Shown in pieces: positions 2,493-23,741 of a stretch of 23,741 bases of DNA. The notes under the pieces were generated by a model, which was not told the origin of the DNA, did not search any database, and worked only from the letters and a program-made list of their open reading frames with translations. The position numbers were made by a program, and so were the translations under genes. Position 1 is the first letter of the stretch; each line of letters opens with the position of its first letter. Source of the DNA: Hyphochytrium catenoides (taxonomy: Eukaryota > Sar > Hyphochytriomycetes > Hyphochytriales > Hyphochytriaceae); NCBI GenBank assembly GCA_900088475.1, contig FLMG01004710.1, forward strand, positions 1 to 23,741. Reading direction: 5' to 3'.

Positions 2493-5400
2493 ATGAGCAA
2501 CGAGGAAAAAGGGCCAGACAAAGCGCGAGCTTTGAGTCAGTATGGCGGAATTTTCTCTTCCATCAAGGGACTCGATTTGGATGATAGTAAGGCTTTGATG
2601 CTGCTTGCAGAGCAGTTTCAAGCCAAGAAGGTACACTTCCATCTCTATTACTTACAACGCGCTGCCTGCATTGCTCGTAACTGTTGCTTTGCTTGTCCAG
2701 GTCTTCCGGTTCGCCTTGACGGCTGTCTCGCGTATCTTAGTTGCTCTTTCCCTATATGCCTGTACCATCGCCATGCCCTCTCCTCCGCACATTCCAGTTA
2801 ATTAGCTACATAATTTCTTACGTGCTCCAACTGGCTGTCAAACAGAGCAAAGTCCTTCGGCGTGGTCGGCACTGGCCCCACTTGTGGATCAAGGAATACT
2901 TAGTACTGGAGCAGGACGTCCTCATGACCTTTGGCTCAGAGGAGAGTCATGGCGATAGCAGAGAGCCACATATAAAAGTCCTTCTCTCCTCGTTATCGCG
3001 CGTAGTTCCTAGCAATCGGTACATCCTTACTTCCGTAGTGCATGACACTCTTTGGTTATGACCCTCAGCTCTCCTCTTCTTACAGTTGTGCTCGTCTCCT
3101 TTTGCGGATAGTTGACGGTCACTGGTCTTCTTTCTTCTGCTCTCTCTTCGACTGCCTTTGTCCTATCTTTCTCCCGCCTGTCAAGGCTCATCCTGCGTCT
3201 GCCTTCTCCCTTCCTGTTACTGCTACTCCTAATATGCGTATGCTGAATAGAGGAGCGCACACTTTTCAGCTCACAGCTGGCCTAGAGACTCTGCACATCA
3301 AATGCCCCTCTGCCTCTGAATGCTGGCTCTGGATGGAAGCGATTGCTAACAACATCAGGGTTATCCAATCCTTTGAGAAATATGCTAGAGAGAGCAGGGG
3401 AGAAGTACCCGGCGCAACGGTGATGCTGGATGACTCTCCCGCTATGAGAGATACGAAGTATGTGGGCGAAGATCTAAGAAAGGTAATCCACTATCCTTAT
3501 GACCTTTTATGGAACGTCATGGGTTCTTTCATAGTCCTGGGCTCCTTCTCCTATGAGACCATTTCGCTCTTTCGTCTCTCCGGCTGCCTCTTCATGAAGA
3601 TGGCTAGCTTCCTCCACGCAAAATCTCCCTACGTCGTCCTTGGGCTTAACTCCTCCGTTCAGGTTTATTCTTCGTCCAATACTTCATCTATGGTCATTGC
3701 TTTTCCCGTATTCTTCTTGGCGATTCGATTAAGTGAGAAGGACTTCTTCTGTATTCTCTTCTCTGCTTCTTGGGTCCTTAGCGTGGCTGGTGGCGCATCA
3801 ACCCTCCAGTGGCCACAACCATGGAGGCTGAGATTCAGAAAGGAGCGAATATTTTGGAGCAATTCCTCAACCCGGCGCTGGGACCCGAGAGAACGGTTCC
3901 AAGGAAGATCTTGCAAAATGCACAAGGTTCGACACGTTCATCCGAATGTCATGATGGAGTGAGAAAAGAGTGAGATGTGGAATGACAGTTTTACTCTTGG
4001 AGATCTCATTGTATCAAATTGAACTGAGTAGAAAAGAAGGAGCGGAACACGTTGATTGTCAGCCCAGGCGATAGCGATGCATGGAACGCATTGCATGACA
4101 AATTACGTCTCGCCCCTTGTGGTTCTCTAGGCTTGGTGCTATTGACAATTTTGAAAGCCGGCTTCATGATCGGCGGCTCCCTGGGCACTGGTCTGGTGTT
4201 AGCTCGCCTCGACAACGGCACGTGGTCTGCTCCTTCGGCTGTGGCAAGCACAAGCCTCAGCTTAGGCATACAGGTGGGCGGCTTTTTATCGCTTGCCACA
4301 GCTTTTCTCCCTCTCTCCCTATCTGTCGCTCTCTTTCTCTCCCTCTCTTCAGGACAAACGTTTCTGCCTTTCAACTTTCTCTCCCTTCTCTGGACCCTCT
4401 CCCTTTTGTCTGCCTCCTTTGTGCGGATCACTAGGCGAAAAATTTAGCTCCTCTCTCCTCTATCCTCCATTGATGGTCCTTCCATTGAACCCAACAAAGT
4501 TCACCTCTTGGCTTCCTTGCACAGGGTGGTGCAGAGATCTGCGAGTTCATGATCGTGCTTAACTCCAAGGTTGTCGGCTGGCCGTTTTCTTTGCCAAAGT
4601 TCCCTTACCTATGCAATCGCAGATCTACCTAGACCGAGTTATCGGCTCTCTTTGTGCTTCCTTCTTGGGTCTATCTTGATATTACCATTGCTCCTTCACT
4701 GAATACGCACGATTGTCACTTCGTGGCGGGTACTTCAAAGTGGGTTTTCCTCTATGCTTGTCACCGGTGAGCATCCGCCACCGATATAGCTTTCTTTCAT
4801 GAACTCAAAGCACCGCACTTATATGACGTCGATCGGATTGTTTCACTTATTGCTGCTTCAACGCTTCCTTAGTCTGCCATCAAGAATCTAACCAAGGGTG
4901 GAAGCCTTACACTCGGAGCGGGCTTGGATTTGGCAATGGGCCCTTTGGGATCTGGTACTGCAGTGGGCCTGACTGCTGGAGTGGGAGGAGTGGTACCGAA
5001 CTACGTTTATGCCCAAGGAAAGGGCCTGTACGGAGGGCTCTCTCTCCAAGGTAAGGATTATTAGTGGTTGCTCGAACCGAATAGGGAGGGATTAGGGAGG
5101 ATGTGCCGGGAGGATCAAGAAAGAGGACGGGAAAGAGACTTCGGCGGCAAGAATTTCCCTCCCTCAAATTCATCTTCTTTGGAAGGGGCCTTCTCAATTG
5201 GTGAATGACGCATTATCTCTCTATATTTTCTCTACTTTCCTCCCAGGCACTGTCATAGCGGCCCGGAATAGTATCAACGAACAGTTCTATGGGCAGCGAG
5301 TGCCTGTAGAAAAGTTGTTGGATGGAACGATGCCTCCTGCCCCGGCATGCAACCCACTTTATAGAATCATAAACGTAGCACTAGGTATCAGTGAGGAAGA

Positions 5401-8400
5401 ATTCTCTAGAAGGTGGGACGGCTAGCTCTGCCAGATTGACCTGCTTTCAGTGCTTTTCAGCGTCACGGACATGTTCGGGCTTCAATGCTCAAAGCTAGCT
5501 CTCACATGCTTGCCTTACCCTATCACTTCGCTTAATTTCCTCTTCTCGTTGGTTCACTTATCCTCTTCTCTCCCACAGCCTTCCAGTAGTCTCATGCATA
5601 TCGAAAAGATCTTCTAACTCCGACCTTTTCTTCGTCTCTCGGCAGGCTGTCGCTATCCAGCGGGCCCCCTAGAATTCCTCCTCCTACGGATATGGTCCCG
5701 CAAACCCCGCCGCTGGTGAGCGTTGCTTGCTCTATTTTTTCTCTTGCCCACTTGGGTGTGGTGATCTCTCTTACCTCAGTCAACTTTAATCCCCTCAGTC
5801 CCCTCGCTGCTGGTGATCTCTCTTACCTCAGTCAACTTTAATCCCCTCAGTCCCCTCGCTGCTGCTGCCGCTTTACTTTGCAGCGGGAAGATCGCGTTCA
5901 TATGTCCTCTGAGTAGCCTCCGTCTGCTATACCTTTCCTTCTTTGGTCCTTCTATGCTGTTTTTCCAAAGAGGTAGATTTGCGTGGTAACGTCTCATCGC
6001 TCCTAACTTTGGGGTCCATCCAGCCTTCCGACGGGATACTCGAGCAAGGAGTAACCGGAGATATCGAGCCTCCCTCGAAGCCTATGGAGCTGATCTCCAC
6101 GCAGGATTCAATCACTCTCTACTGGCGCTGGGCAGGGCGAACGCTCAATCTTGCTAACAACGAACAGGTTGGATGCTCACTGTTCGTGAATTGAAGTGCG
6201 AACTAGTACCACGCTTAGTGCTAATATGTTTGTGTTAGGTTCTGTTCATCGTGCAATGGAAGAAGGCTAACGGAAGCGAGTGGATTCATATGAGATTTCC
6301 TGTCTCCGCCACCTCTGTTAAAAAGACTATGCTTGCAGCTGGTAAGTTTAAAGAGAGGCAAAATTGCAGCCGCCTGAAGAGCAATAAAGGGAGTTCTCTT
6401 GCCAACTTGAGATAGTTGAGATGTCTAAACAGAGGTTTACGGTCTCATGAAATTAGTCTCAACGGCAAGCGGGAAGGGAAAGAGGGAAACATGGCTCTAG
6501 TTAGCCGTTGGACCATCTACACTCTAATAATGACTGTCTCCGCTCTGTCTTGCAGACACGGAGTACATGTTCCGCGTCCGGGCACAATTGGGAGACAAGG
6601 TCTCCACGTGGTCTCCTCCTAGCGACGTCATTAGGACAACATCTCCGCTGAACATGCACTGGACGGATGCAGCCTCAGCCAAATCCCCTAACCTACTTGC
6701 CGAAGGTACCGGGTGTTGCCCACCGTTAATCGTGGAGCTGCTCTAGCTTATTGCCCCTAATCCTACGTCTTGTCGCTTATCGATATTTAGCCGAGTCCAA
6801 CCCTCGCTTGCCGGGACCACCTGAGGACTTGGTGGTTAAAGATATTGGGTCCACCCAGTTCACTATTGAATGGAAGGAGCCCAGGCACAAGGGAAGGAAT
6901 TGTCTGAAGATTGACTTTTATAGAGTTCAGTGGAAGAAGATAAAGGAGCTGAAGTGGGACAGCGATATCTGTATAGAGCAAAGGTGAGCGTATCATAAGA
7001 GGCGGTGACAGGCAAGAATGACCAGAGATAGGGGTGGGAGTTAGAAGGGTGCGAAGTTTGTAGGAGACAAAAAAACTAAGTTCATCTGCCCTAAGCGTTA
7101 TAGACAGTAGCAGGTACAACGGAGGACAAAGGCCCTCAGGAGGTGGTGAGAGACTGATGAGTCAGAAAAAGCTTCCTAGGAAGATGGAAGAGAAAAGAGA
7201 AAAGATGGTATAGCAGGGAAGGCTAAGTTTAGAATTTGGAGATAAGAAAGCAGCGAGTCTTTTGGCCATCCAAGCATTGACGCATGCTCTATCTTACCAC
7301 TCCCTCTCCTCGTTCATCGCAGCTTCACTGTGTCAGAGTTGGAGCCAGGGGAGATTTACGAGGTCCTAGTTATGTGCAAGAATAAGCACGGTACGTCCAC
7401 GAGGTCAACAATTTTAATCGCCCTCCACATCCTTTAGTTCCTGCTACCATCTTTATACTGCACACGTCCCTCTCGAGCTCCCACCTCGACCTCCCCAAAA
7501 CTGATTGAAGATCAGTTGAGCTAAGGACTTCTGCTCTCTCTCTCTTTGTTCTACTCTTAGGTTGGGGCAACCCCATACGCTCAGATATCATACCTCTTAG
7601 AACAGAAGAAGGAGGAACTACTGGAGAACCCTCCGCTCCTCCTGCTTCCCTTTTAGAAGACCCCAATCAGTTCATCGACTGGCTTGACGTCGACATCAAG
7701 GATATCAAGTTCGATGATCCCAAGAAAGTGTTAGGAAAGGGTGGCTATGGCGTTGTCTATCGCACAGCAGAAAAGGGCTTCTTAGGTTTGAAATCTTCCT
7801 CTTCCTGCTTCGCAACGCCTTTAAGTCCTGACTTTTCCAGCCTTGAGTTCATATCCGTACACCTCGCTTTCCCCACCCAGCTTTGCCCATAAGAAGGGCT
7901 CAAGAGTCATGTCGCCTTCTATCCCTTGCCGACAACTTCCTTCCTTTACCTTTCCTTTAGCGATCTGTGAGTGTGCGGACCTCTCGTCTCCCTTCCTGCC
8001 GGAATTTGGCGAAGTAGCATCTATCAATAATGGTCTGGCTCTCATATAGGCAAAACGGCGGCCGTTAAGGTGCTTCACACGCAGTTACATGGGGACGCTG
8101 ATGCCATGAAGGATATGAGGACGGAAGTTGCTCTTCTCTCCTCACTTCAGCATCCCAACCTGATAGAGGTGAGTTCTCTGCCAGGGTAACTAAGAGTCCA
8201 CTGACATAGTAGACCGGTAAAGAAGTAAAGGGAGGATATCTCGTTTAAACAGCCATCAGCCACTTCCTAGTCTATCACGGTGCTCATTGATAGGATGTAC
8301 AAGCTCTGACATGAGTTCGTATGTTAGCTCTATGGCGCGCGTCTGCGTCCGGACGCTTTCTTCATAGTTACCGAATATTGCGACGCGGGTTCGCTGTACA

Positions 8401-9522
8401 GTGCTATCTATGAGGTAGATTAGATGCGATAGAGCTTCTCACACTCCAACTCTTCCTGGCCTTCCCTCTCTGCCTTTGTTAAGCAGGAATCTCGCTTGTA
8501 TGCCTGCCAAAAGCTCCTGAACCTTTTCTAGGAGCATGTCACTCCTCCATCTTCTTTAAAGTCTATATGCCACCCGAGAGCTCCCTCATTGATCTCTTTT
8601 ATTCTATCGACTGTGCTTTTTAGAAAAAGCCTCTGTTGACCTTCATGGAGAAGCTGATGGTCCTGTATGAGACAGCAGAGGCGCTGGCCTATCTTCATTC
8701 CCAGTCTCCTCCCATCATTCATAGAGATATTAAGCCTCAGGTAAGGCTTGATTTTGTTTTCTCCCTCGCCAGATGGACTTTCTCAGCTGGATTGGCTCCT
8801 CGGTCTCTCTCAGTCCGTTTGCGTTCTTAGCTGCTTGATCTCTTGCACCGTCGAGAGACTCTATCTAGTAGTAGTCACTTGGCCAGCGAGCACTCTTCCG
8901 TACTCCATATAGAAAGACTTTCTTATGACGTAACTCGTGCCCATGGTACTAGAACATCCTGCTCTCAACCATGGATCCTCCTGCCGGACCGCTACGCTAT
9001 CGCACCAAGCTAGCTGACTTTGGGTTGTCGCGGGCGAGAGAGTTTTCGTGCCTGTACACTACCGTCGGTGGAACCTATGCTTATCTCTCTCCGGAGTCAT
9101 TTAGGTAAGAAAACCGGCCCAAGAGGTAAAGGGGGGCGAGAGCTTTCTGAGGGATTGGACAGGGAGACAGTGGGTGAGGGCAAAATGATGGAAGGAGGAA
9201 GGTCCGCTGGGCATAACAGGTCTTCTGTCTTCATTGCCATTAGTTCTTTCATTAACCATAGGATTGCTCTATCTCTATCTCTGGCTTGTCTTACTCTTAT
9301 GTCGGCCTCTCCCCACTGCATTCGCGTGTCCAACAACCAAACAGAGTCAATGCGTCTATCACTGAAAAGACGGACGTATACTCGTTCGGTGTGATGATGC
9401 TGGAGACTCTTACAGCCGTCGCTCCATGGAAAAACTGCGCGCCGCATCAGATCACAATGCTCGTCGCTGTAAAGGTCAGCCATGACTCACCGCCTTATCT
9501 GTCTGTCTGATTCTGGGAGAAG

Positions 9523-9558
<36 letters not shown>

Positions 9559-9965
9559 AAACAGTTGTCCTCGAACTCGTATATCGCCACTATGCCCTCT
9601 CCCATCTCCTGGTCTCCCATCTCCTGGTGTCTTAAGTTACTTCTTCTCCCAGAGTGTTCTTGCTTGAATGTCCTGGTCAGGAGGTGCCGCCGCAATGGCT
9701 CTATCATTCTTGAGCTTCTGTCCAGTCCCTCCCGCGCCACCCTATACTCCTTTCGCCTGGGACTGGATCTATGTCTATCCCTTTCTTCTCTCATCACTTG
9801 CCTACTCTCCTCCAGAAAGAACGGCCTCCCATCTCTCCTGCCGTTCCCGAGAGGTTGGCGAAGATTATCCGTGAGTGTTGGCAGGATGACGCAAACTCTA
9901 GGCCGTCACTAGATGATGTGGCCTCTAGACTGCAGGACTTCCTAGCTGAGATCGCACTATCATAG
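2493..9965 (+). CDS. PH-SYLF-FN3-FN3-protein kinase (TKL-like) fusion protein
   Basis: Predicted 983 residues from 21 exons: 2493-2630, 2846-2977, 3186-3482, 3782-3926, 4131-4273, 4525-4569, 4873-5050, 5247-5412, 5646-5715, 6024-6167, 6239-6341, 6556-6705, 6791-6983, 7323-7390, 7561-7785, 8050-8168, 8328-8414, 8624-8740, 8953-9104, 9345-9474, 9816-9965. All junctions are GT-AG and in phase.
Domains: PH about 47-147 (KVLRRG...[12 protein letters not shown], then HTFQL and the C-terminal helix Trp139); SYLF/Ysc84 about 200-414 ([47 protein letters not shown]); proline-rich linker 415-438; FN3 about 453-552 and 577-673; kinase about 705-983.
The kinase looks active: G-loop GKGGYGVVY 716-724, Lys739, Glu758, HRD Asp836, DFG Asp862, SPE 886-888. 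GTYAYLSPE and the C-terminal [11 protein letters not shown] fit the TKL group. PH and SYLF domains are known to bind phosphoinositides or membranes, so membrane-recruited signalling is inferred. There is no signal peptide or membrane segment.
Least certain are the exon 2/3 border (acceptor GTCAAG at 3181-3185) and whether one transcript spans SYLF to FN3. Exon 9 joins them in phase on both sides. Confidence 0.85.
5759..5863. repeat. 52-bp perfect tandem duplication in an intron
   Basis: Bases 5760-5811 and 5812-5863 are identical over 52 nt, both starting GGTGATCTCTCTTACCTCAG. They lie in the intron between the proline-rich linker exon and the first FN3 exon of the kinase gene. Each copy carries two acceptor-like sites (ACCTCAG and CCCCTCAG). 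Perfect identity implies a recent duplication or an assembly artefact. Confidence 0.95.
9526..9557. repeat. CT microsatellite in the last kinase intron
   Basis: A CT run of about 32 nt in intron 20 of the kinase gene (9475-9815), with CT on the sense strand. It is followed by AAAACAG, but the conserved kinase C-terminus starts only at 9816, so this nearer AG is not the acceptor in the model. Confidence 0.9.
9598..9627. repeat. 15-bp tandem duplication in an intron
   Basis: Two perfect adjacent copies of TCTCCCATCTCCTGG lie within intron 20 of the kinase gene. No function is suggested. Confidence 0.9.
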
Positions 9966-11744: not shown

Positions 11745-11851
11745 GAGAGAGAGAGACAGAGACAGAGGGAGAGAGAGAGAGAGAGAGNNNNNNNNNNNNN
11801 NNNNNNNNNNNNNNNNNNNNNNNNNNNNNNNNGAGAGAGAGAGAGAGAGAG
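11745..11851. repeat. GA microsatellite containing an assembly gap
   Basis: GA repeats run into 45 N (11788-11832) and resume in the same pattern on the far side, so the unknown bases are probably more GA repeat of uncertain length. Confidence 0.93.
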
Positions 11852-12188: not shown

Positions 12189-12556
12189 ATGGCTCCAGGA
12201 GGGCGCAATCGTAGGGGCAGAGGAGGCCGACAAGAGGCCAGGGGAAGGGCCAACCGACAGAAGCCTCCGCCAAAGGGTGCACCTCCTCCTCCGGTGGGCT
12301 GCTATCCTTCTTGCTTCTCCCTGTGTCGTCTCTTGCTTGTCTCTTGTTTGTTATCTTCTTCCTCCTGCGCCTTGCGGACGATTGCATTTTGCAAGCTTAG
12401 CAGGCCACCTTCCCCTCCCTTTCTCTCTCCCTGTTCTCTTTCTATCCTCTACGTCTTTCTCTTTCTGGCCCTCTGTGTTCTCTGTCCTCCCCTGCTCTAG
12501 CTCTCTCACATTCTCTGCTCTCTCGTCCTCTTCCCCTCCTCTCTCATTCTCTGCTC

Positions 12557-12613
<57 letters not shown>

Positions 12614-13681
12614 TTTTTTTCTCCCTCTCTTTTTGTCTTTCTCTTGCCCTATTAAGCAAGAAGTCGCGTCTCCTCTCTCTCCTATATGTTTCCATTAGCC
12701 TTGACACACGTTGTATGCAACACTTTTTCTGTCTGCAGCAATACATTGTGCCCGAGTCTTTCCAGATTGAGACCACAAAGATGCTGATGTCCATCAGAGA
12801 AGAAGGATTGCAAGGTCAGCTTCGTTTTTCCTCTCTCCTTCTAGCCGCTGTCCTCGCGTCGATGGCCTTCACGTCTCTTAGGTTTGAGCTCTTTACTCAT
12901 TCTCCCCCGTGCTTCCTTGCACTCGTACTTCTTATGGGCTCCAGCCGTCAGTGCACGTGTCTCTCCTTCTCTTCGCGCGCATGTCTTCTAGAAATAAGTC
13001 TTCTCAATGACCCTGTTTTCTCTCTTTTTCGAGTGCTCACTAACATTGCACTGGGCCAATCTCTGTCTCTTTCTTTCATTCTTCTCCCTCCCTCTTTCTC
13101 TCTCTCTGTGTCTCTCTCTCTCTCCGTCAATACTCTTTGGTTTTATGTCTCCTCCTGTATCTGATATATTGGTCTAGCTGTAAGCTTTCCGCCGACTTTG
13201 GACAGCACTCAACGGCGGTTCATACACTCAATGTGCACCAGACTAGGACTTCATTCCAAGAGTCAAGGGTAAGAAGGGATCTACATGCATTTGTCCCTCC
13301 TCTCTCTCCTTCTTTTTCTCTCTCTCCCTCTTTACTATCTCTCCCCTCTCTCTTTCTCTCTCTCTCGCGCGCGCGCCCCCAGACTCTCTCTCCCCCAGGC
13401 TCTCTCTCTATCACTCTCTCTCTCTCTCTTCCCTGCTCTTTCTATCTTTTGCTTTGCTAATTCACGCGACTCTGTCCGCTCGGCGCAATTGTAACGTTCG
13501 AATCTTTACGCGACATCCTCCTTCTGCTCACCACTCAACGCCACCTTCCTACTACCACACTTCTACTCTACCCTTTATCTCTTTTTCGATGCTGTGGATC
13601 TAACCTGTTCCCGTCTTCCTTCTTTCCTCACCTCTTCTCTTTACCTGGTTTCCCCTTTTTCTCTCTCCTCTCACTCTTTCT

Positions 13682-13742
<61 letters not shown>

Positions 13743-16700
13743 TTTGTGTCTCTCTCTTCTCTCTTTATACGTCTTTCGCGCCGTGTGCAGCAAGGGTGAC
13801 AATCGCTATATCACTGTGTATCGGGATAAAGATACAGCGACTGGAGGTGCAGGCAAACAAGAGAGGCAAGGTCCTGCGCAGTACCTCTCCCTTCCCGAAG
13901 ATATGCTCTCAGCGATAGAGGAGTACTATCAAGCTCAGCCAATGACAAAGAGAGAGATAGAGGAGGTAGACAACAGACACCAAGACCTGCTGCAAGGTCA
14001 GACATACGAAAAGTAGCTTGTCAGCTCTCTCTATACTCTTTTTTACCGTTCTCTCTCATCGACTTTCCTCTACTCCTAATGGTAGTGTGGGAGAGTGGGC
14101 TGTGGATCTATGGCTTTCTGTCGTGTTCTCTCTCTCTTTCTCTCTTTCCCACTCCCTCTCGCCATACCACTTGTTTCATTCTCTCTCTCTCTATCGATTT
14201 CCTCTCTTTGACTGCTATATCGTGCTTGTTTGACCTATGTCCCACTCTATCTTCCTCTCCTCTCATCGAACTCCGGTCCTTTCTTCGCCCAGTGCCTGTG
14301 ATCCGAAGGCTTGGAGCCCCATCGTTCGCTCATCGTAAGGGCCATCAGAGTGAGCTAAGAGAGAGGAGGGCGCAGTATGAGAAGTGGAAGGAGAGGGTCG
14401 ACTCCTCCAAGGTGTTGAAGAACATAAATGAAGCAAGGGCTCGTCTTCCTACCACTAAGCACAAAGAGGAGATTATCAAGGTGAGAAAAGCACCCTTAGG
14501 CAAGAGAAAAGTCTCAAGCAAGAGGCGCCTGGCGGACTATCTGGACACTGCACGGTCCACAGGACCCTTTGTCTCATTCTCTATCCCTTTCCGCGTCCGT
14601 CTGTTCTCTCTTTTTGGCCTCGCTGGCTTGCTCTTGCTCTATCGTCTTCTTTATCTAAGTGCGTTCTCTGACTAGATGATCAAGACACATCAAGTCTCCA
14701 TAGTGAGCGGAGAGACAGGCTGTGGAAAGAGTACACAGGTATATTCCATGACGTATAGGGTAGCGTTGGCTCTGCAAAAGGGGATCAAGCGGATGGAGTC
14801 ACGTGGGAAGGATTGAGCCTGGCTTGCAAAGGGTGAAGCCTGTTCAGAAGGAGAAGTATGACGGCTTCCGTTTAATTTTATGAGAGAGATGTGTAGACAG
14901 CCTCAGCATTTGGTGTCGCCTTAGGGGCTTGATTGACCAGCTAAGCGGACAACGAAGAGAACCTAGCGAGACTGACGCAGATAGAAAGAGAAAGGGCCAC
15001 CATCTGAAGTGTGTTCTCTTATCTTACGTCTATACTGCTAGGTTCCTCAGTACATTTTAGAAGACGAGGAGCTTGGCCCAACATGCAAGATAGTCATTAC
15101 GCAGCCCAGAAGGATTTCCGCGATTGCCTTGGCTGGTAAGAAGGGGTTAGCTTCCTGCATCACTTTAGTTCCACTTTTCCAAGCAGAAGATTGCTCTTCT
15201 CTTCTTCTCTTTCTCCGCATGAGGGTCAGATATCTACTGATCTGGTGGAAAGCTAGAGAGCAGGTGTTGTTCCTTTTCTAGACTTAAGCCAACATGTTTC
15301 CTTCGCCCTCCACCGTCCCCAGTTTGTTCGCTTGTCAGTGATCTAAATCACCTTCCTTCATTCCTTTCACCTCGTTTCGTATGCCTGTGTAGAGCGTGTC
15401 TCCTATGAGCGAGGGGAGAATGTCGGCCAATCCGTGGGATACTCTATTCGTTTAGAGTCTTCTGTTTCCTCTGCCACCCAGCTCACCTTCATGACTGTGG
15501 GAGTCCTTCTACGCAAGATCTCCAATGACAGACTCCTCTCAGAGTTCACGCACATCATCCTTGATGAGGTGAGACATGGATGATTATCCTGCTCTACCTT
15601 CGTGTCTTTCCCTGCCCTGTGTCTTTTCTGCAGAATAGGAACTTAGTGATAAGCTAATGTCTAACAAAATGCACTGAAGACCTGTGTATCCTTCGACGCT
15701 TACACCCTGATTTGCTGGCTACATCGCTTCACCTGGTTCTCAGAGCAGCTCTCCTTCTCCTTCTCAATCAGGTCCACGAGCGGGACCGCTTGTGTGACTT
15801 TATGCTTATCCTGATTAGGGACATCTTACCACTTCGCCCAGACCTCAGAGTAGTGCTTATGAGTGCGACCATACAGGTATGAGAGAGAGATGCGGCATCC
15901 CATGTAGCACGCACCATTCTATCTCTGTGTATCTCATCAAGAGCAGGTCCATTACTTCTACGCGGCTTTAGGTTATACCTATTATCACCAAATGTCCTAT
16001 CTATAGCTCTTTTCACTGAACACTCTGTCTCCCCAACTCTGTCCTCATGTGCTCTGATTGCCTCCTGTTTTTGGAGCCCTTCCGTCCATTGTGCGCGACG
16101 GAGCTCTTCCCTTGTTCACTTCGCTGTACAGAACTACTGACCCTTTTTGGTGTGGCTCTTGCCGCGCTATTTCTCTCTCTTAGTTGGAAACGTTCAGAAG
16201 CTATTTCGCCTCCTGCCCAGTCATCCAAGTCCAAGGCCAGGCTTTTCCAGTCACAGAGTGCTTCTTGGAAGATATTCTTGCCCTTACGCACTTCGTGTCT
16301 CGTCCTTCGAGAAAGAAGAGAGGCAATGGAGGAGGAGACCAGATATATTCACTTCAAATGGACGAGGAAGAAAAGGAACAGCAAGTGGATGGGAGCCAGA
16401 CCGAACAGAGAGAGTATTGGTGTCCTCTATGCCAAACGGCCTTAGAGTCGGCTGAAGCGTTTGGCTCTCACATAACCGACTGCCTAGGAGCCGCACAGGC
16501 TCCTCAAAGTGTTGCCTCAGCGGTAAGATCACTGTTACTTTGGGAAGAAGAACATATTCTGTTAAGATCCCAAGAGAGGGACAAGCTGATACTTGAAGAA
16601 ATCAGGAGGAGATGAGAGATCTGCAGGAGAAGGTTAGAAGGGGTCGCGACCAGTACCAGAAAGCCTAGATAATTGCTCAACTTGATGCTTACGCCTTTGT

Positions 16701-19700
16701 GACCTCTACAATGCTTCAGGAAGGCGGAAGCGCTGGGGACCTTGTGCGCCAGGAGATAGAGAGGCAGAAACTCCTCAGCGTAAGTTCCAGATAGCAAAGA
16801 ATCAAGGATTACAGATGCACGTGTGCAAAACGATAAGAGGAAGCGAGAAAACAGAGACGCAGCCAGCATAAAGATAAGGAAGGGACATCCCGACACAGCT
16901 CATGAGCCGCACTCAGCGAACAGGAGGTTTCCATAATTTAGCCCCCTTTCTTGCCCTTGCCACAGTCCGAAGTAGAGGAGATGCTGTCGGTATATCAGGG
17001 CGAGTGGAACGACGAGGCAGTGGATCTAGACCTTATCGAGGCTCTTCTGACGCACTTGGACATGAAGAACTATGGAGAAGGAGCTGTTCTAGTCTTCCTG
17101 CCAGGTTTTAGATAACGAACCGCCCTCAAGCTCTTCCTCTCCCGCTGAGCTATTTAGGCTTCAGAGTGCGCTCTCTCAATCTCTCTCCGCTCTTCCTCTC
17201 ACCCTTGCTCATCAAATTATAATCTCTTCTTTGACCCTGTTCTTGTCACTGAAGGATGGGACGACATCTCGAGTCTAATGGCGAAGCTTCTCTCAAATCA
17301 CCGCTTCTGCAACCGATCGCGCTACTGGATCTTACCTCTGCACAGTGGAGTTAGGTACCACCCTCCGCCCTCGTGCTTTACTGACTTACTCTCGTCTTCC
17401 ATTCTGGGATCAGTTTTGCATTCATGTTTGGTTTCACCTGCGTGCATCTATTCTTGAGCCCTATGTGCTGCTAAAGGCTGATGGGTTCGAGCTGTTTTTT
17501 GGGCAGGGTAGCAATACAATGGCCAATCCCTTATCACTGCTGCTTGGCTCGCCCTATACTCTCTGCCGCCATCTTCTCTCACATAATGATGCGTTGGTTA
17601 TCAGCCCCTTCTCTTTTCTCTTTGGTTAGCCATCATCTTCCTCCCTATTGCGGTGCTCCATTCAAAAGTTTCCTGTGTGACTTTGGCTGTACATTTTAGT
17701 TACTCAGAAGCTAAAGATATGCTCTGCAGCACCGCCAAACAGAAGGAGGTCTTCCGCCACCCTCCTCCAGGATGCCGGAAAATCATCCTGGCAACCAACA
17801 TAGGTGCAGAATCGGCCCCTTCTCCCTCTTTTCTTCTTAAGATTTCCTCTTGCTCTATATAATCCAGAGTAGGTGGCATACGCTAACTCTCTTTCTTCCC
17901 TCTCTGGCTGTGTCCACTGTTTGCGGTAGCGGAGACAAGTATCACGATTGATGATGTGGTTTTCGTCGTCGATGGAGGAAAGATGAAGATGAAGAACTAT
18001 GACCCGCACCTTGCTATGGCGACATTCCAACCGCAGTGGGTGGCGAAGGCGAATGCTCAGCAGAGAAGAGGAAGAGCAGGTAGACTTCTACTCTGCTTGT
18101 AGCTCTTATACGAACGGTTCCAGCTCTAAGTATTATAAGGGACTACCACTACCTAGACCGCGGCCAACCTTCGCTTTATGACTGGCTCTTTCCTCGTTTT
18201 AGGCCGAACCCAGCCGGGCGTTTGTTTCCATACCTTCTCCCGGACGCGATTTGACGCTATGGATGACTTTCCAACGCCTGAACTTCTTCGTACTCCTCTA
18301 GAAGAGCTTGTGCTTCAGGTAAGGAAAGGGCGAGCGTTATGTACGGGACGAGATGTCTGTTATAAAGGTTGAAAAGTAGTTAGGCCATAAAAGGACTCAA
18401 AAGGCGGTTACGGCAGAGACTCTCGAGGCTCTGAAAGACAGAGGCTCCTACCGCTATTGTTGGCCAAGAGTGGAGAGGAAAGAGAGGGGGAGGAGAGAGA
18501 GAGGCAGAGACAGAGAGAGGGACAAGGAGAGGGAAAGAGAGGCCAATATGAGATAGACAGCAGATTGTGCTCGTGATGCTGTTCTCCTCTCGACAGTGTT
18601 TCCTACTGTTCTTTAGTTTGGGTTTCGCCCCATTCTTTTTGACGTCACATGGCTCCTTTCTCACGATGAACTTGCCGGCATTTTATTCAGGTTAAGCTGC
18701 TCGACTCCACCGGAGAGTTAGAGGGACCGGGAGGCGTAGAGGAGTTTCTCAGCAAGGCGCCGGAGCCGCCTCATCCGAAGGCAGTGCATAATGCTCTTAC
18801 TCTACTGAAAAACCTCGGTACGGGACGATAGTACCTAACTCTTACCGTTGTGTCTCCTGTCCCTTTGAGCTCTCGGCACTTTGCTGGCGGATGTCTCGAC
18901 TGTAGCTTTGCTGTACAAACAGCTCTCATCGTACCCGTCGAGTCTCTCTGGGTCCCAGCGATATTAGTCTTTAAATCCTCTTTCTCTCTGTTTCTCTCTT
19001 TTTTGGGGCTTGTCCCGACGCCTGTTGGCTGTACTTATTGTACTGCTTGTCGTTGGGTGGCGGCTCTGGTGCACCAGCTTTCTCTCTTCTTGTCTCTTAC
19101 CCGCCACCTTCCTCTTATCTCTGTCATTTTGTGTGGCTATTGCTCTTCACCGTGCTTAGGGGCACTGACCGAAGAAGAGAGTCTTACGGCGCTTGGCTTG
19201 CACCTGGCAAGTCTTCCGTTGGAGCCTCGACTGGGCAAGATGATCCTCCTTGGGCATCTCTTACGGTGTATAGACCCCGTAATAACCGTAGGGTGAGAAA
19301 ATGATTTGACGAGGAGGGAACCGTCCAGTCCTCTCTGACCTGTGCAGTCCTCTCTGACCCGCGCAGTCCTCTCTGCTATCATGAGACTTCTTTGGGCTGG
19401 AAGTAACAATTTCATGATGATAGCCTTATATTGTTTTTCTCAGATCTCTGATATGCCTGTCTCTTCTTTTCTCGAGTCGACTACTGTTTGCTCTCTCGAA
19501 GGTTTGGCCTTAGTCATTAATCTTTATGCTGAAGTATAAGTGCTCGCTCTCACTCCTCACTCTCACACGGCTTGCCTTCCCAAAAGTTGTGGAATCTCCT
19601 ACCGAGACCCATTCTTGTTACCGATGAACTTTGAGCAGAAATTAGAAGCTTCCAGGGTACGCCCAATACTGGCGCCCTCTCTCCGCTCTGCCTAGCTTCT

Positions 19701-21192
19701 GCAAGCTATCATCTCCTTGCTTCTGCACTTGCTTCTACTATAGCCTTAGCGCTAAGGCTTAGTCATCCTTCTAGGTGTTGTTTGCAGTCCGGTGACTATT
19801 CACACGTTGATTTCTGAGTTCTAGATGATATAGAGACACGTTACCCTTACGTAGTACTCTTTCCTCACTTCGTAACTGTTCTTCGCACTCTCTTCTCTCC
19901 TTTGTTGTCTCCTTTTTGTCCAGGTCAAAGTAGAGCTATCCCAGGGCCTTCGTAGCGATCATCTCACTGCGCTGCGTGCATTTTATTCTTGGGAGCTGAC
20001 TGAGGCAGAAGGAGGGACTGACGCGGGTTGGCGTTTCTGCAATGATCACTTCCTCTCTCTCCCAACACTCTCGATGGTCAAGCAAATGATCCCTCAGATG
20101 GCCAACGAGCTTGCTAAGGTAGGCACGCATTCCTAGGAACTTTGCCTAGCTCCTAACAGTGCCTTTGATACCTTAGTTCCAACTTTGTCTGGACTATATC
20201 CTTCTATTTCACCTCATAATGTGCAGGCTTCTCCCGTTTAACCACGTCCCATCGTTCTTTAACATTGTCTCTTTTTTTCCCAGTCATTCCTCATGGCTTG
20301 GTTTGGCTCACGTGGTTGGGGCTGCTTATGTCTCGTATGTCCTTGGCTAATCTTTATCCTCACTTTCTTCTTTTTGCTTCGCGTTGTATCTAGGTGGGCT
20401 TCGGCCGTCGCAGTCGTGAGGAATTTGAAGACCTCAACTCGCATTCTCGCAACTGGGGCGTCCTTAGGGTACGTATGCGCTGTGATGGATATTTTGCTCA
20501 TCGTGGTCCGCAGCTGCATGCTGCCGTGCTCACCTGAGATGCTCTGTCTCCCTAAACAGCCCTCACCAAGCTTGGCTCAGTTCCTAGAGAACCGCACTGA
20601 AAAACCTTAGATTCCTCTTTTAGACGTATCTGAGACGCTTTGACCTTCGGCATCTCACCATCTGTCTCCTGTTCGGCAGGCCGTTCTGAGCGCAGGACTA
20701 TATCCAAACGTTGTGAGGAGAGACAAGGGCCAAAAGAACTTCCGTACATTTGACGGGAAGTCCACCAAGTTCCACTTGTCATCTGTCTGCGCTCAAGACG
20801 GAGATAGTATGAAGAGGGAGAGAAAGAAGAAAGACAGAGATTGGATGGTCTTCACCGAGATAATTCAGACAAAAGACATCTTCACCGTCAGAGATAACAC
20901 TCCGGTATCAGAGCTCTCTTCCTCGCCCACCTTCTTTCTCAATAGAGTCTTTCCTTCGTCCCTGGGAATCCTTCCTAGATGAAGGTTATCTTCTTAAGGC
21001 GTGTTGCCTGTATCGTTTTGCGCTTAGCCTGGCTGGGTATGTTGCTAAGAAAATGCCATGATACAGATGTCTCTTCTGGCGCTGCTGCTGCTGTGCGGGA
21101 ATACTGAGCACACGGAGATAGTACGCAGAAGGAGACGACGCTGTGACATAGATTTTGAGGGTCAGTATCTCTTTGGCAGATTGTCCCTTCTT

Positions 21193-21224
<32 letters not shown>

Positions 21225-21350
21225 TCTTCGTTTGCCTCCCCTTCTCCCACTCTCGTGTCCTGTACATCTGCATCGTGTAGCCTAGCCAAATCCCTCTGAA
21301 GACTTCCATTTACATCGTAGAGCTTGTGCACTCTCTGGGTACTGTCAGCT

Positions 21351-21385
<35 letters not shown>

Positions 21386-21625
21386 GACGGTAGTTCCCTT
21401 CTGCGCAGATGATGATGAAATGGACGAGATTGATTTAGATGACCTAGAAGATGACGAAGATGAAGACGACGATGTGCTTTATATGGCCCAGTTCGCTGAC
21501 AGTAAAGGTCTCTTGGACGAGATAGACGAGGAAGAAGAAGAGAGAGAAAAGATCCTTGTGCTGGATGAGAAGATCCGGTTCAAGATGACACAAGGTATGT
21601 CGAGGAAGACTAGAGATCCGCCTCT

Positions 21626-21658
<33 letters not shown>

Positions 21659-22477
21659 TGCTTAAGCTTGCTCACAGCTCCATTTTATGTGTGCATAACT
21701 CCTTAGACGCACAGCTTTGTCTGCTCTCTTCAGAAGCCAGAACTCTCTGTTCCGCCTGGAGACGCTCTTCTCCATGCTCCATCCTGCATCCTAGCTTATC
21801 TTTCTTCTCTCCAAGTGAGGCACAAAAACCTCTCTTTTGCCTCTCTCTTTCTCTCTTGTCTGTTCCTTCTCCATGTGCTTCCAAATTCTGATCAAGCCTC
21901 TCGGTCTGCCTTCCTTTCTCTCTCTCTTTAACCCCTGGTTCATGCCTGTCTTTTAGAGCTATGTGACCAGCTCGTCACCCTCCGCCGTCGCTTTCAACAT
22001 GCATTTCTCTTCCACATCGACAACCCTCAGGAGGCTCTCCCTCCGCAGCACGAAGCTACCGTTTCTCTCATTTTAGAGCTGTTGGAGATGGAAGGCCCAG
22101 AGGAAATCAGACACGGGAAATTACGAGAGAGAGAGAGACCGAGATGGGGAAGAGGAGGAAGCAGACGAGGAGGCAGAGGAGGAGGAAGGAGAGAGAGAAG
22201 TGATGGTGGGTCCTCCCGTGGTGCAGAGAGAGAGGGCGGGCTCGTATGGCGCGGAGGGAGAGGAAGAGGTGGAAGAGGAGACAGAAGAGACAGAGGATCT
22301 ATTGCTGACGTGTACGCTGTAGAGACAATGACTCTCTCCTACCGTGAAGAGCAGGTGACCTACTTTGGCCACAGCGAAGGTGGATCGCGGGGAAGAGGAG
22401 GACAGGGAAGAGGAGGAAGAGGGAGAGGAAGGTCTTATGGTGGAGGGCGTGGAAGAGGAAGCCGGGGCAGATATTGA
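12189..22477 (+). CDS. R3H domain DEVH-box RNA helicase with RGG tail
   Basis: Predicted 1235 residues from 25 exons: 12189-12293, 12739-12814, 13178-13268, 13791-13996, 14293-14480, 14676-14738, 15042-15135, 15393-15568, 15772-15876, 16184-16522, 16720-16779, 16966-17104, 17255-17354, 17730-17803, 17930-18079, 18203-18318, 18691-18817, 19160-19292, 19587-19656, 19924-20118, 20394-20468, 20680-20904, 21067-21160, 21409-21594, 21957-22477. All junctions are GT-AG and in phase.
Features in order: RG-rich N-terminus; R3H domain about 50-105 (Arg73-x3-His77, SQGKGDNRYITVYR); RecA1 with GETGCGKST 234-242, TQPRR 263-267, DEVH 332-335, SAT 364-366; zinc-finger-like insert Cys448, Cys451, His464, Cys468; RecA2 with TNIAETSITIDD and QRRGRAGR 650-657; HA2/ratchet and OB-fold region; acidic stretch 1001-1024; RGG-rich tail about 1125-1235.
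R3H plus this DEAH/RHA-type core recalls YTHDC2 and the plant NIH helicase; no YTH domain follows. Expected role: ATP-driven remodelling of structured RNA or RNPs, not specified further.
Least certain are the N-terminal exons 1-2 and the region between exons 10 and 11. Confidence 0.88.
12553..12620. repeat. CT-rich microsatellite in helicase intron 1
   Basis: CTGT and CT repeats followed by a T-run lie in the 445-nt first intron, on the sense strand. Translated through, they give a false serine/leucine-rich open frame. Confidence 0.9.
13300..13440. repeat. CT-rich tract in helicase intron 3 (5' half)
   Basis: Interrupted CT repeats with a short CGCGCGCG block lie near the 5' side of the 522-nt intron 3 (13269-13790). 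Confidence 0.8.
13676..13767. repeat. CT microsatellite near the acceptor of helicase intron 3
   Basis: About 90 nt of nearly pure CT/TTTC repeats end about 25 nt before the acceptor GTGTGCAG (13783-13790). It is placed as an extended polypyrimidine tract. Confidence 0.9.
18481..18543. repeat. GA-rich tract in helicase intron 16 (reversed polarity)
   Basis: GA-rich repeats on the sense strand in the 372-nt intron 16 (18319-18690). This is the clear exception to the CT-on-sense pattern of the other intronic microsatellites. Confidence 0.85.
19326..19377. repeat. 19-bp tandem repeat, three copies (last partial)
   Basis: CAGTCCTCTCTG recurs at 19326, 19345 and 19364. The first two full 19-nt units differ at two positions. 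It lies in helicase intron 18 (19293-19586). Confidence 0.9.
21191..21227. repeat. CT microsatellite in helicase intron 23 (first block)
   Basis: A sense-strand CT run of about 37 nt lies shortly after the donor of intron 23 (21161-21408). A second block lies next to the acceptor. Confidence 0.9.
21351..21385. repeat. CT microsatellite near the acceptor of helicase intron 23
   Basis: A sense-strand CT run ends about 23 nt before the acceptor CTGCGCAG at 21401-21408. The following exon begins with the acidic GAT-rich segment. Confidence 0.9.
21628..21659. repeat. CT microsatellite in helicase intron 24
   Basis: A sense-strand CT run lies just downstream of the donor GTATGT (21595) in the 362-nt last intron (21595-21956). 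Confidence 0.9.
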
Positions 22478-22814
22478 GAAGTTGAGAAAGTACAAGTCTT
22501 CCTCACTTTGCCTCTCTCTCTTCGCTTTTTTTCTACACTATGGTCAGAGAAAGCAGTCAATAAACTGGCCATTGTTGGCGTTTACTTTCTCTAAAGCTCG
22601 TAAAGCTTCAAGGATCTCCTAACAGCAAAAGATACGGCTAGAGAGAGAGAGAGAGTGTGAGTGAGAGGAAAGGAGGACCAGACTGAGCACCAGGTTCCGC
22701 TTTGTAAAGCTGAATACTTTTATCAAAAGCAAATAAATATGTTGGTTGTTAGTGCTATACTAGGGACAACCGCCCTGCCTATCTCTATGTCCCTCTCTCT
22801 CTCTCTCTTCTCTC
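22478..22814. other. Convergent 3' intergenic interval
   Basis: These 337 nt separate the helicase stop codon (+) from the WW protein stop codon (-). They contain two AATAAA motifs on the plus strand, a short GA run near 22640-22653 and a CT run near 22792-22810. No coding sequence was recognised. Confidence 0.7.
22559..22564 (+). terminator. Candidate polyadenylation signal of the helicase gene
   Basis: A canonical AATAAA lies 82 nt downstream of the helicase stop codon. A second AATAAA at 22732-22737 is an alternative. Whether this organism uses the AAUAAA hexamer is unknown. Confidence 0.4.
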
Positions 22815-23516
22815 TTACGTCATTAGTCCATCCAACATGCTAAACCTATCAAAGCTATCTCTGGAGCAAAGAGAAAGAAGCGACTCTCGCTCCGGTTCTT
22901 CATCTCTTCTTTCGTTCTTGTCTGTCACTAAGACTGCGCCTCGGGGAAGAGTCCACACAGCTTCCTGAGAGAATTGGTTCTGATAGTATGTCTCTCCTGT
23001 CTCCTTATCTATTCTCTCTTCCCAAAGGTTCTCTTCTTCTCTTTGTTCTCCCTGCATTCTCTCCCATAAGTTTTCCAGTTGAGCTCCAGCATCCGGGACA
23101 GTTTGGATAATAAAGGCGGCGACAGGGTTGAGACTAGAGTCAAAGAAGCTCTCTTCTTTGTCTTCTCTCTTCTCCTCTTGTCTCTCCTCAGCGTAGTAGA
23201 TTACTGAGGACGAGGAGAGAGAGAGAGTAGGAGAGAGATTATCTGTGCCCTTACTTTCGCAAGGCTGGGATGAGATAAAGCAGGAGAGAGAGATGCAAGA
23301 GCGCTTGAGAATGGGTTGAATGGTTTTGTCTTGTCTCTCTTTTCTCGCTCTCTCTTCTCTCTCTTGCTCTGAGAGACTGGCAATGTCTAACGTAGGAGAT
23401 TCTTGATGAAAAATCTTGATGTGGATGAGCTGTGAGCCTTCAGGCCATCGGACCGTTCTCTTCCGCTTATTATGAAGCGTCCGGGACTGTTCATCTCCGA
23501 TGTTGGCGGTAAGCAT
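22815..23516 (-). CDS. WW domain protein with PP1-docking-like motif
   Basis: A single open frame of 233 residues starts at an ATG at 23516. The C-terminal part carries a WW domain at about 163-192: Trp165, the aromatic pair Tyr177-Tyr178, Trp188 and Pro191. The Trp-Trp spacing of 23 residues is normal for the family, which binds proline-rich peptides. Near the N-terminus a basic KRKR (17-20) runs into TVRWPEG (21-27), which fits the [RK]-x-[VI]-x-[FW] docking motif for protein phosphatase 1 and resembles the PNUTS site. Two charged, Glu/Arg-rich segments (about 48-64 and 109-123) may be helical. Residues 73-108 are serine-rich and low complexity, and may include a 51-nt intron (23254-23204) whose removal keeps the frame. 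It is intronless, or nearly so, beside very intron-rich genes. The overall family is not recognised; a nuclear adaptor for PP1 or RNA processing is a guess. Confidence 0.75.
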   Translation of the reverse strand: MLTANIGDEQSRTLHNKRKRTVRWPEGSQLIHIKIFHQESPTLDIASLSEQEREERARKERQDKTIQPILKRSCISLSCFISSQPCESKGTDNLSPTLSLSSSSVIYYAEERQEEKREDKEESFFDSSLNPVAAFIIQTVPDAGAQLENLWERMQGEQREEENLWEERIDKETGETYYQNQFSQEAVWTLPRGAVLVTDKNERRDEEPERESLLSLCSRDSFDRFSMLDGLMT

Positions 23517-23741
23517 GGTTCTTTCTCCTCTATTTCTCCTCTCTTTCTTTCCCCGTTGACGCGCTTTGCGATGGAGAGGCTGCGCCTAGTGTCTACTCTT
23601 CTCTTCTGGGCCTAGCGCCGCGGACAAGCAGAGAAATGCTTTACGAAGAAGGAAGGTTGCATAATGAAAAGTCGCCCTACGAGTACTGCTTGAAGAATAG
23701 TGAGGGCTATGTATTAGGGGAGAGAGAGAGAGAGAGAGAGA
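23517..23741. other. Upstream region of the WW protein gene and right-edge GA repeat
   Basis: These 225 nt upstream of the minus-strand ATG must hold the 5' UTR and proximal promoter. Nothing further is recognised. The final 22 nt (from about 23720) are a GA microsatellite at the contig edge. Confidence 0.6.

What the first reader, a model, noticed from the sequence alone, without database searches (positions are those of the whole stretch)
2493..9965. PH-SYLF-FN3-FN3-kinase: an unusual single-chain signalling architecture
Seen: 21 exons join in phase to give PH, SYLF, proline-rich linker, two FN3 domains and a kinase with all catalytic residues. Known: SYLF domains occur with SH3 (SH3YL1, Ysc84) or FYVE partners and bind phosphoinositides or actin; FN3 domains are usually extracellular. 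I know of no described protein joining PH and SYLF to a TKL-like kinase. Inference: a cytosolic kinase recruited to phosphoinositide-rich membrane by two lipid-binding domains, with the FN3 pair as spacer or docking module.
Basis: partly seen in the sequence, partly recalled or inferred. Interest (0 to 1): 0.78.

Follow-up and report, generated by a model that had tools for sequence, protein, structure and literature searches.

The report
PH-SYLF-FN3-kinase fusion gene in a protist
A gene in an unnamed microbial eukaryote appears to join two membrane- or actin-associated modules, two spacer-like domains and an intact protein kinase in one protein, a combination we did not find elsewhere in limited searches, though RNA evidence that it is one transcript is missing.

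Summary
Twenty-one GT-AG exons at 2493-9965 (+) join in phase. Pfam places PH, SYLF (Ysc84), two fn3 and Pkinase above their curated cut-offs, in that order, and the kinase keeps the catalytic residues checked. I moved one splice site of my own first model: exon 5 starts at 4131, not 4032, which removes a 33-residue insert from SYLF and gives 975 aa. The kinase is TKL-like by nearest solved structures. Of five SYLF contigs in this genome only this one showed a kinase match. No listed database hit joins SYLF to a kinase (120 of 158 hits listed; all 12), but sensitivity is limited.

The weak point is the SYLF-to-FN3 junction: 135 of 400 shuffles link as well. Yet the donor leaving the SYLF exon is unusually strong (equalled by chance in 38 of 3383 windows). 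I judge one protein about 78% likely. 'Two lipid-binding domains' is half supported: SYLF keeps the lipid-binding LK pair; PH lacks the canonical arginine. Best reading: a cytosolic kinase targeted to membrane or cortex, a new combination of known parts.

The parts
2493..9965 (+). whole gene, 21 exons: 2493-2630, 2846-3018, 3251-3482, 3782-3926, 4131-4273, 4525-4569, 4873-5050, 5247-5412, 5646-5715, 6024-6167, 6239-6341, 6556-6705, 6791-6983, 7323-7390, 7561-7785, 8050-8168, 8328-8414, 8624-8740, 8953-9104, 9345-9474, 9816-9965; 975 aa
   Evidence: all GT-AG, in phase, no internal stop
2855..3356 (+). PH domain, residues 50-139 (exons 2-3)
   Evidence: PF00169 28.8 bits in the whole protein, 32.8 in residues 1-158 alone, cut-off 25.1; coordinates
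3824..5392 (+). SYLF/Ysc84 domain, residues about 196-400 (exons 4-8); Pfam core 271-394
   Evidence: PF04366 108.6 bits; aligned to 4 SYLF sequences of the same genome and 11 of the 12 hits; coordinates
5646..5715 (+). exon 9, proline-rich linker; the bridge between SYLF and FN3; borders uncertain
   Evidence: one search found an alternative exon 5646-5812 joined to acceptor 5971 with a slightly better score
6069..6632 (+). first FN3 domain, residues about 446-538 (exons 10-12)
   Evidence: fn3 28.9 bits when this region is scanned alone, cut-off 25; coordinates
6814..7574 (+). second FN3 domain, residues about 571-654 (exons 13-15)
   Evidence: PF00041 best stretch 572-654; coordinates
7722..9932 (+). 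TKL-like protein kinase domain, residues about 704-965 (exons 15-21): G-loop 708-715, K731, E750, HRD 826-828, N833, DFG 854-856, SPE 878-880, D893, R955
   Evidence: Pkinase 704-962, 165.5 bits; PK_Tyr_Ser-Thr 704-965; motif positions; nearest solved structures

Best explanation
One gene encodes a 975-aa cytosolic Ser/Thr kinase of the TKL group, brought to phosphoinositide-bearing and actin-rich membrane by an N-terminal PH-SYLF pair. SYLF does most of the lipid binding; two FN3 domains hold the kinase away from the membrane or dock a partner. Shown here: exon structure in phase, domain order, intact catalytic residues, conservation of the SYLF lipid-binding pair. Inferred: one transcript, membrane targeting, Ser/Thr activity (from HRDIKPQN), cytosolic location, and that lipid binding affects the kinase.
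For: PH, SYLF, fn3 (two stretches) and kinase above Pfam cut-offs in one continuous frame. All kinase motifs checked are present. The first 22 of the 60 PDB sequences listed (of 2615 matched) are kinases that I class as TKL from their names (CTR1 E 1.5e-41, TAK1, Roco4, MLK4, MLT, TNNI3K); the 23rd is EGFR. SYLF keeps Ysc84 lipid-binding L55-K56 as L237-K238 and R73-L74 as R255-L256 (mutant data PMC4552428, passages and section 5). SYLF binds PIP3 in SH3YL1 (PMC9264614, one passage) and PI3P plus actin in CFS1 (PMC5561093, passages). One gene: the donor at 5413 ends the SYLF exon 10 bases before the read-through stop; 0.5% of 1125 background GTs score as high, and a chance donor that strong occurs in 38 of 3383 45-bp windows and 0 of 402 coding windows. 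Introns 8 and 9 are 64.8% and 65.9% pyrimidine on the coding strand; that level is reached by 5 of the other 18 introns, and of 233-bp flank windows by 0 of 76 upstream, 5 of 67 downstream and 1 of 35 at the window's end. No AATAAA or TATAAA lies between 5413 and 6023.
Against: In 135 of 400 dinucleotide shuffles of 5413-6023 an in-frame splice path from SYLF to FN3 scored as well as the modelled one, so linkability alone proves nothing. The pyrimidine bias is moderate evidence only: 13 of those other 18 introns do not reach it either. No orthologue was found to confirm the join. PH lacks the canonical binding arginine. The actin-binding pairs of Ysc84 are only half kept: KK16,17 is Q200-K201 and RR176,177 is R358-N359. 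No transcript data.
Confidence: 0.68

Rival explanations
1. Two adjacent genes: a PH-SYLF protein ending at the in-frame stop 5423-5425 (or in another short last exon), and an FN3-FN3-TKL kinase starting at the ATG in exon 9 (5692) or in exon 10 (6084). The long chain is then an artefact of joining.
For: The SYLF match ends about 10 codons before the read-through stop; exon 9 holds an in-frame ATG; shuffled sequence links as well in 135 of 400 cases; no orthologue of the whole chain.
Against: The strong donor at 5413 would be chance (38 of 3383 windows, 0 of 402 coding windows). The intergenic space would be about 266 bp, while the gap to the next gene downstream (ATG 12189 by eye) is about 2.2 kb. 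No AATAAA or TATAAA in 5413-6023; weak, since none follows 9965 closely either.
Confidence: 0.18
2. One gene, but a scaffold whose main job is actin and membrane organisation at endocytic or phagocytic cups, with the kinase acting on itself or on bound partners; the SYLF actin switch (actin binding blocked by PI(4,5)P2, as in Ysc84) is the regulated step.
For: Ysc84 SYLF binds actin and PI(4,5)P2 inhibits this (PMC4552428, passages and section 5); the window keeps R358, K201 and the LK pair.
Against: Two residues of the actin-binding pairs are changed (Q200, N359); the protein has no SH3 match, and SH3 is what targets Ysc84 (PMC4552428, passages).
Confidence: 0.1

Closest known systems
SH3YL1 / Ysc84 (Lsb4) / Lsb3, SYLF plus SH3
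   Same: SYLF domain with the lipid-binding LK pair; 37% identity to yeast Ysc84 (recalled sequence) and 39-43% to the five fungus-named hits
   Different: no SH3 match; SYLF in the middle of the chain, not N-terminal; PH, FN3 and kinase added
CFS1 / CFS2, FYVE-SYLF proteins (described as plant-specific)
   Same: a lipid-binding-type domain N-terminal to SYLF; FYVE lies just upstream of SYLF at two other loci of this genome
   Different: PH instead of FYVE; SYLF is not C-terminal; kinase present
TKL kinases: CTR1, TAK1, Roco4, MLK
   Same: kinase domain; a [11 protein letters not shown] stretch just before the glycine loop resembles TKL kinases (recalled, not from a call)
   Different: I know of none that carries SYLF (recalled); accessory domains differ

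Membership tests
SYLF/Ysc84 (PF04366) | profile match above curated cut-off | tested here: met
   108.6 bits, cut-off 25.1
SYLF/Ysc84 (PF04366) | lipid-binding pair LK55,56 of Ysc84 | tested here: met
SYLF/Ysc84 (PF04366) | actin-binding pairs KK16,17 and RR176,177 of Ysc84 | tested here: inconclusive
   QK and RN. The second R is replaced in all 4 same-genome SYLF rows (H, K, G, K) and in 10 of 11 database rows (6 of them K); the eleventh has a gap
SH3YL1/Ysc84 subfamily | SH3 domain next to SYLF | tested here: not met
   no SH3 match at E 0.1
CFS1-type FYVE-SYLF | FYVE zinc finger N-terminal to SYLF | tested here: not met
   no FYVE match at E 0.1; PH instead
Protein kinase | VAIK Lys, alphaC Glu, HRD, Asn, DFG, APE-like, subdomain IX Asp, subdomain XI Arg | tested here: met
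   motif positions; assignments by eye
TKL group | closest relatives are TKL kinases | tested here: met
   first 22 of 60 listed PDB sequences, group assigned from names; no tree was built
PH domain | profile match above cut-off | tested here: met
   28.8 and 32.8 bits, cut-off 25.1
PIP3-binding PH subclass | K-Xn-[KR]-X-R motif with the Arg before the beta-2 aromatic (recalled) | tested here: not met
   W60-I-K-E63-Y-L-V-L: Glu at that place, placed by eye from the Pfam range; the regular expression does match residues 45-56, but there the Arg (R54) lies in the beta1-beta2 loop
FN3 | two profile matches above cut-off | tested here: met
   two stretches, 70.2 bits; first region alone 28.9 (cut-off 25)

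The most novel reading that the evidence does not exclude
A new class of membrane-sensing kinase in which a SYLF domain, a lipid/actin switch, directly gates a TKL kinase, so that actin nucleation and phosphorylation at phosphoinositide-rich membrane are coupled in one chain.
Probability: 0.2. Interest if true: 0.7.

Novelty: new variant of a known kind. Interest (0 to 1): 0.42.

Why it matters
In the papers seen, SYLF is described beside SH3 or FYVE. A SYLF-kinase chain would be a natural tool for asking whether SYLF lipid or actin binding can regulate an enzyme, and would show another way in which a microbial eukaryote wires cortical membrane to TKL signalling. Such lineages often shuffle domains (general knowledge), which tempers the surprise.

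Tried and rejected
Rejected: exon 5 starting at 4032 (my own first model, used): poor acceptor, and it adds 33 residues absent from the four other SYLF sequences. Rejected as proof: in-frame linkability of SYLF to FN3 (135 of 400 shuffles reach the modelled path, 121 of 400 the best real path). Rejected: WLDV (690-693) as an autophagy motif, because it sits in the pre-kinase segment (recalled). Rejected: inactive kinase (motifs present).

Led nowhere: (SYLF region alone, uncorrected model, 7993 candidates, no hit at E <= 0.001). PDB search with the PH region: two weak matches to an unrelated enzyme. AdoHcyase search, meant to help place the organism: no match. Eukaryotic 18S search: not answered. 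tRNA and Rfam scans of the window: nothing. Paper searches with no paper on such a fusion: (titles and abstract starts only, apart from passages of PMC2837644 and PMC5561093).

Full report
What was checked. The window is contig C610 of an unnamed 42.5-Mb assembly of 1105 contigs; its introns mark it as eukaryotic. I translated the three forward frames, assembled 21 exons by eye and verified phase and GT-AG borders. Aligning the SYLF part with four SYLF sequences from the same genome showed a 33-residue insert unique to my model. A later acceptor (4129-4130) keeps the phase, scores 9.8 against -0.5 with a matrix that includes it (6.8 when left out), and gives an uninterrupted SYLF domain. The corrected protein has 975 residues.

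Domains. Pfam on the corrected protein gives PH, Ysc84/SYLF, two fn3 stretches and Pkinase above their cut-offs. The kinase has the glycine loop 708-715, K731, E750, HRD 826-828, N833, DFG 854-856, SPE 878-880, D893 and R955. Of 2615 PDB sequences matched, 60 were listed; the first 22 are kinases that I class as TKL from their names, led by CTR1, TAK1 and Roco4, and the 23rd is EGFR (run with the 1008-aa model, whose kinase is identical). HRDIKPQN suggests Ser/Thr specificity (established kinase knowledge). The only PDB sequence matched by SYLF alone is a chain named Lipoprotein, 7ofn (E 2.7e-5, run with the uncorrected stretch).

SYLF residues. Mutants of yeast Ysc84 assign lipid binding to LK55,56 and actin binding to KK16,17 and RR176,177 (PMC4552428; passages and section 5). 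Window: L237-K238, Q200-K201, R358-N359; RL73,74 is R255-L256. The lipid pair is kept and each actin pair keeps one of two basic residues. The second R of RR176,177 is also replaced in all 4 same-genome rows and in 10 of the 11 database rows aligned (6 of the 10 have K; the eleventh has a gap), so its loss is not special to this protein. CFS1 SYLF binds PI3P and, as an isolated domain, actin (PMC5561093, passages; PMC9584626, passages, also reports the pairing with FYVE). SH3YL1 SYLF binds PIP3 (PMC9264614, one passage). Hasegawa 2011, the source of that, was not read.

PH residues. Placed by eye from the Pfam range, the residue before the beta-2 aromatic is E63, where PIP3-binding PH domains have arginine (motif recalled). 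The regular expression for the motif does match residues 45-56, but its arginine then falls in the beta1-beta2 loop. That loop is basic (K45, K46, K48, R51, R52, R54), so other lipid binding is possible.

Is it one gene? Against easy acceptance: after dinucleotide shuffling of 5413-6023, 135 of 400 shuffles offered an in-frame path as good as the modelled one, and the real sequence offers a second path (exon 5646-5812, acceptor 5971) with a slightly better score, 5.90 against 5.76. For: the donor at 5413 is in the top 0.5% of 1125 background GTs and lies 10 bases before the read-through stop; a chance donor that strong occurs in 38 of 3383 45-bp windows and in 0 of 402 coding windows. I chose that window size after seeing the site. 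Introns 8 and 9 are 64.8% and 65.9% pyrimidine; 5 of the other 18 introns reach 64.8%, against 0 of 76, 5 of 67 and 1 of 35 flank windows of 233 bp, which is moderate support. No AATAAA or TATAAA lies in the gap. The scoring matrices come from 18 introns of the same model and are rough. I put one gene at about 78%.

How unusual is it? In its own genome SYLF matches fall on five contigs (seven pieces). In a search with the whole protein, kinase matches fell on the window's contig but on none of the other four SYLF contigs (45 of 84 candidates were scored, so the list is a lower bound). C112 and C350 have a FYVE match just upstream of SYLF on the same strand; that these are single FYVE-SYLF genes is inferred. 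The 44 FN3 pieces share contigs with the kinase matches only at the window, at C799 (about 165 kb apart) and at C864 (about 36 kb apart). In the protein database the full-length query (uncorrected model) gave 158 hits among 7994 candidates; of the 120 listed none carries PF04366, and 38 were not seen. The A2 profile gave 12 hits, all SYLF, none with a kinase, PH or fn3 domain. Each search scores only about 8000 candidates sharing short words, so a diverged relative could be missed. Literature: SYLF domain + kinase domain + FYVE, no paper; SYLF + kinase + amoeba, none; SYLF + protein kinase + domain architecture, one listing, on BTK partners; DUF500 + kinase, seven listings, none on such a fusion by title and abstract start. 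Of the 25 papers with 'SYLF domain' I saw passages of three. This is no proof of absence from print, as many journals are not held.

Mechanism. Most likely PH-SYLF targets a cytosolic TKL kinase to membrane or cortex. FN3 domains inside cells can act as rigid spacers or docking sites (general knowledge; a titin chain is the one listed PDB match that falls on the FN3 region). Whether lipid or actin binding regulates the kinase is open.

Verdict. A real, probably functional new combination of known domains; novelty is at the level of architecture.

Noticed in passing
L010:8580-8939 (-) and L008:4302-4661 (+); SYLF downstream in each: FYVE next to SYLF in this genome (FYVE 62.7 and 46.6 bits). 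PMC5561093 (passage) calls that pairing unique to plants, yet no light-harvesting family match was found here. A third SYLF locus (C961, L009) has an upstream Cys-rich stretch that may be part of a FYVE finger (by eye).
   Followed up: partly
L012:1841-4357 (-), L013:1862-4510 (-), L014:769-3240 (+): Three kinase loci have hydrophobic stretches upstream of the kinase that look like multi-pass membrane segments (by eye); the receptor-kinase reading is untested. Pfam confirms the kinase in L012 and L013; the first L014 frame gave no match and its second frame was not scanned.
   Followed up: partly
window 12189-22477 (+), ends by eye: Next gene downstream, an intron-rich DEAH-type RNA helicase: GETGCGKSTQ and MSATIQ motifs, OB_NTP_bind match in 20644-20982 (51.8 bits), RGG-like C-terminus; AATAAA follows at 22559.
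   Followed up: partly
window 22815-23585 (-): 256-aa open frame with weak matches below their cut-offs: WW-like (22.1 bits, cut-off 26.9) and MobI (19.1 bits, cut-off 26.6).
   Followed up: no
G000:C984:48744-67103 (-): Eight FN3 pieces inside one open frame of 11308 aa: a very large possible protein.
   Followed up: no
window 3483-3781 (+): Intron 3 (299 bp) has no stop in the frame that enters it; if kept, it would shift the frame in exon 4 and end at 3960-3962. Introns average 58% pyrimidine on the coding strand.
   Followed up: no
window 11788-11832: A run of N inside GA repeats: an assembly gap or withheld stretch downstream of the gene.
   Followed up: no
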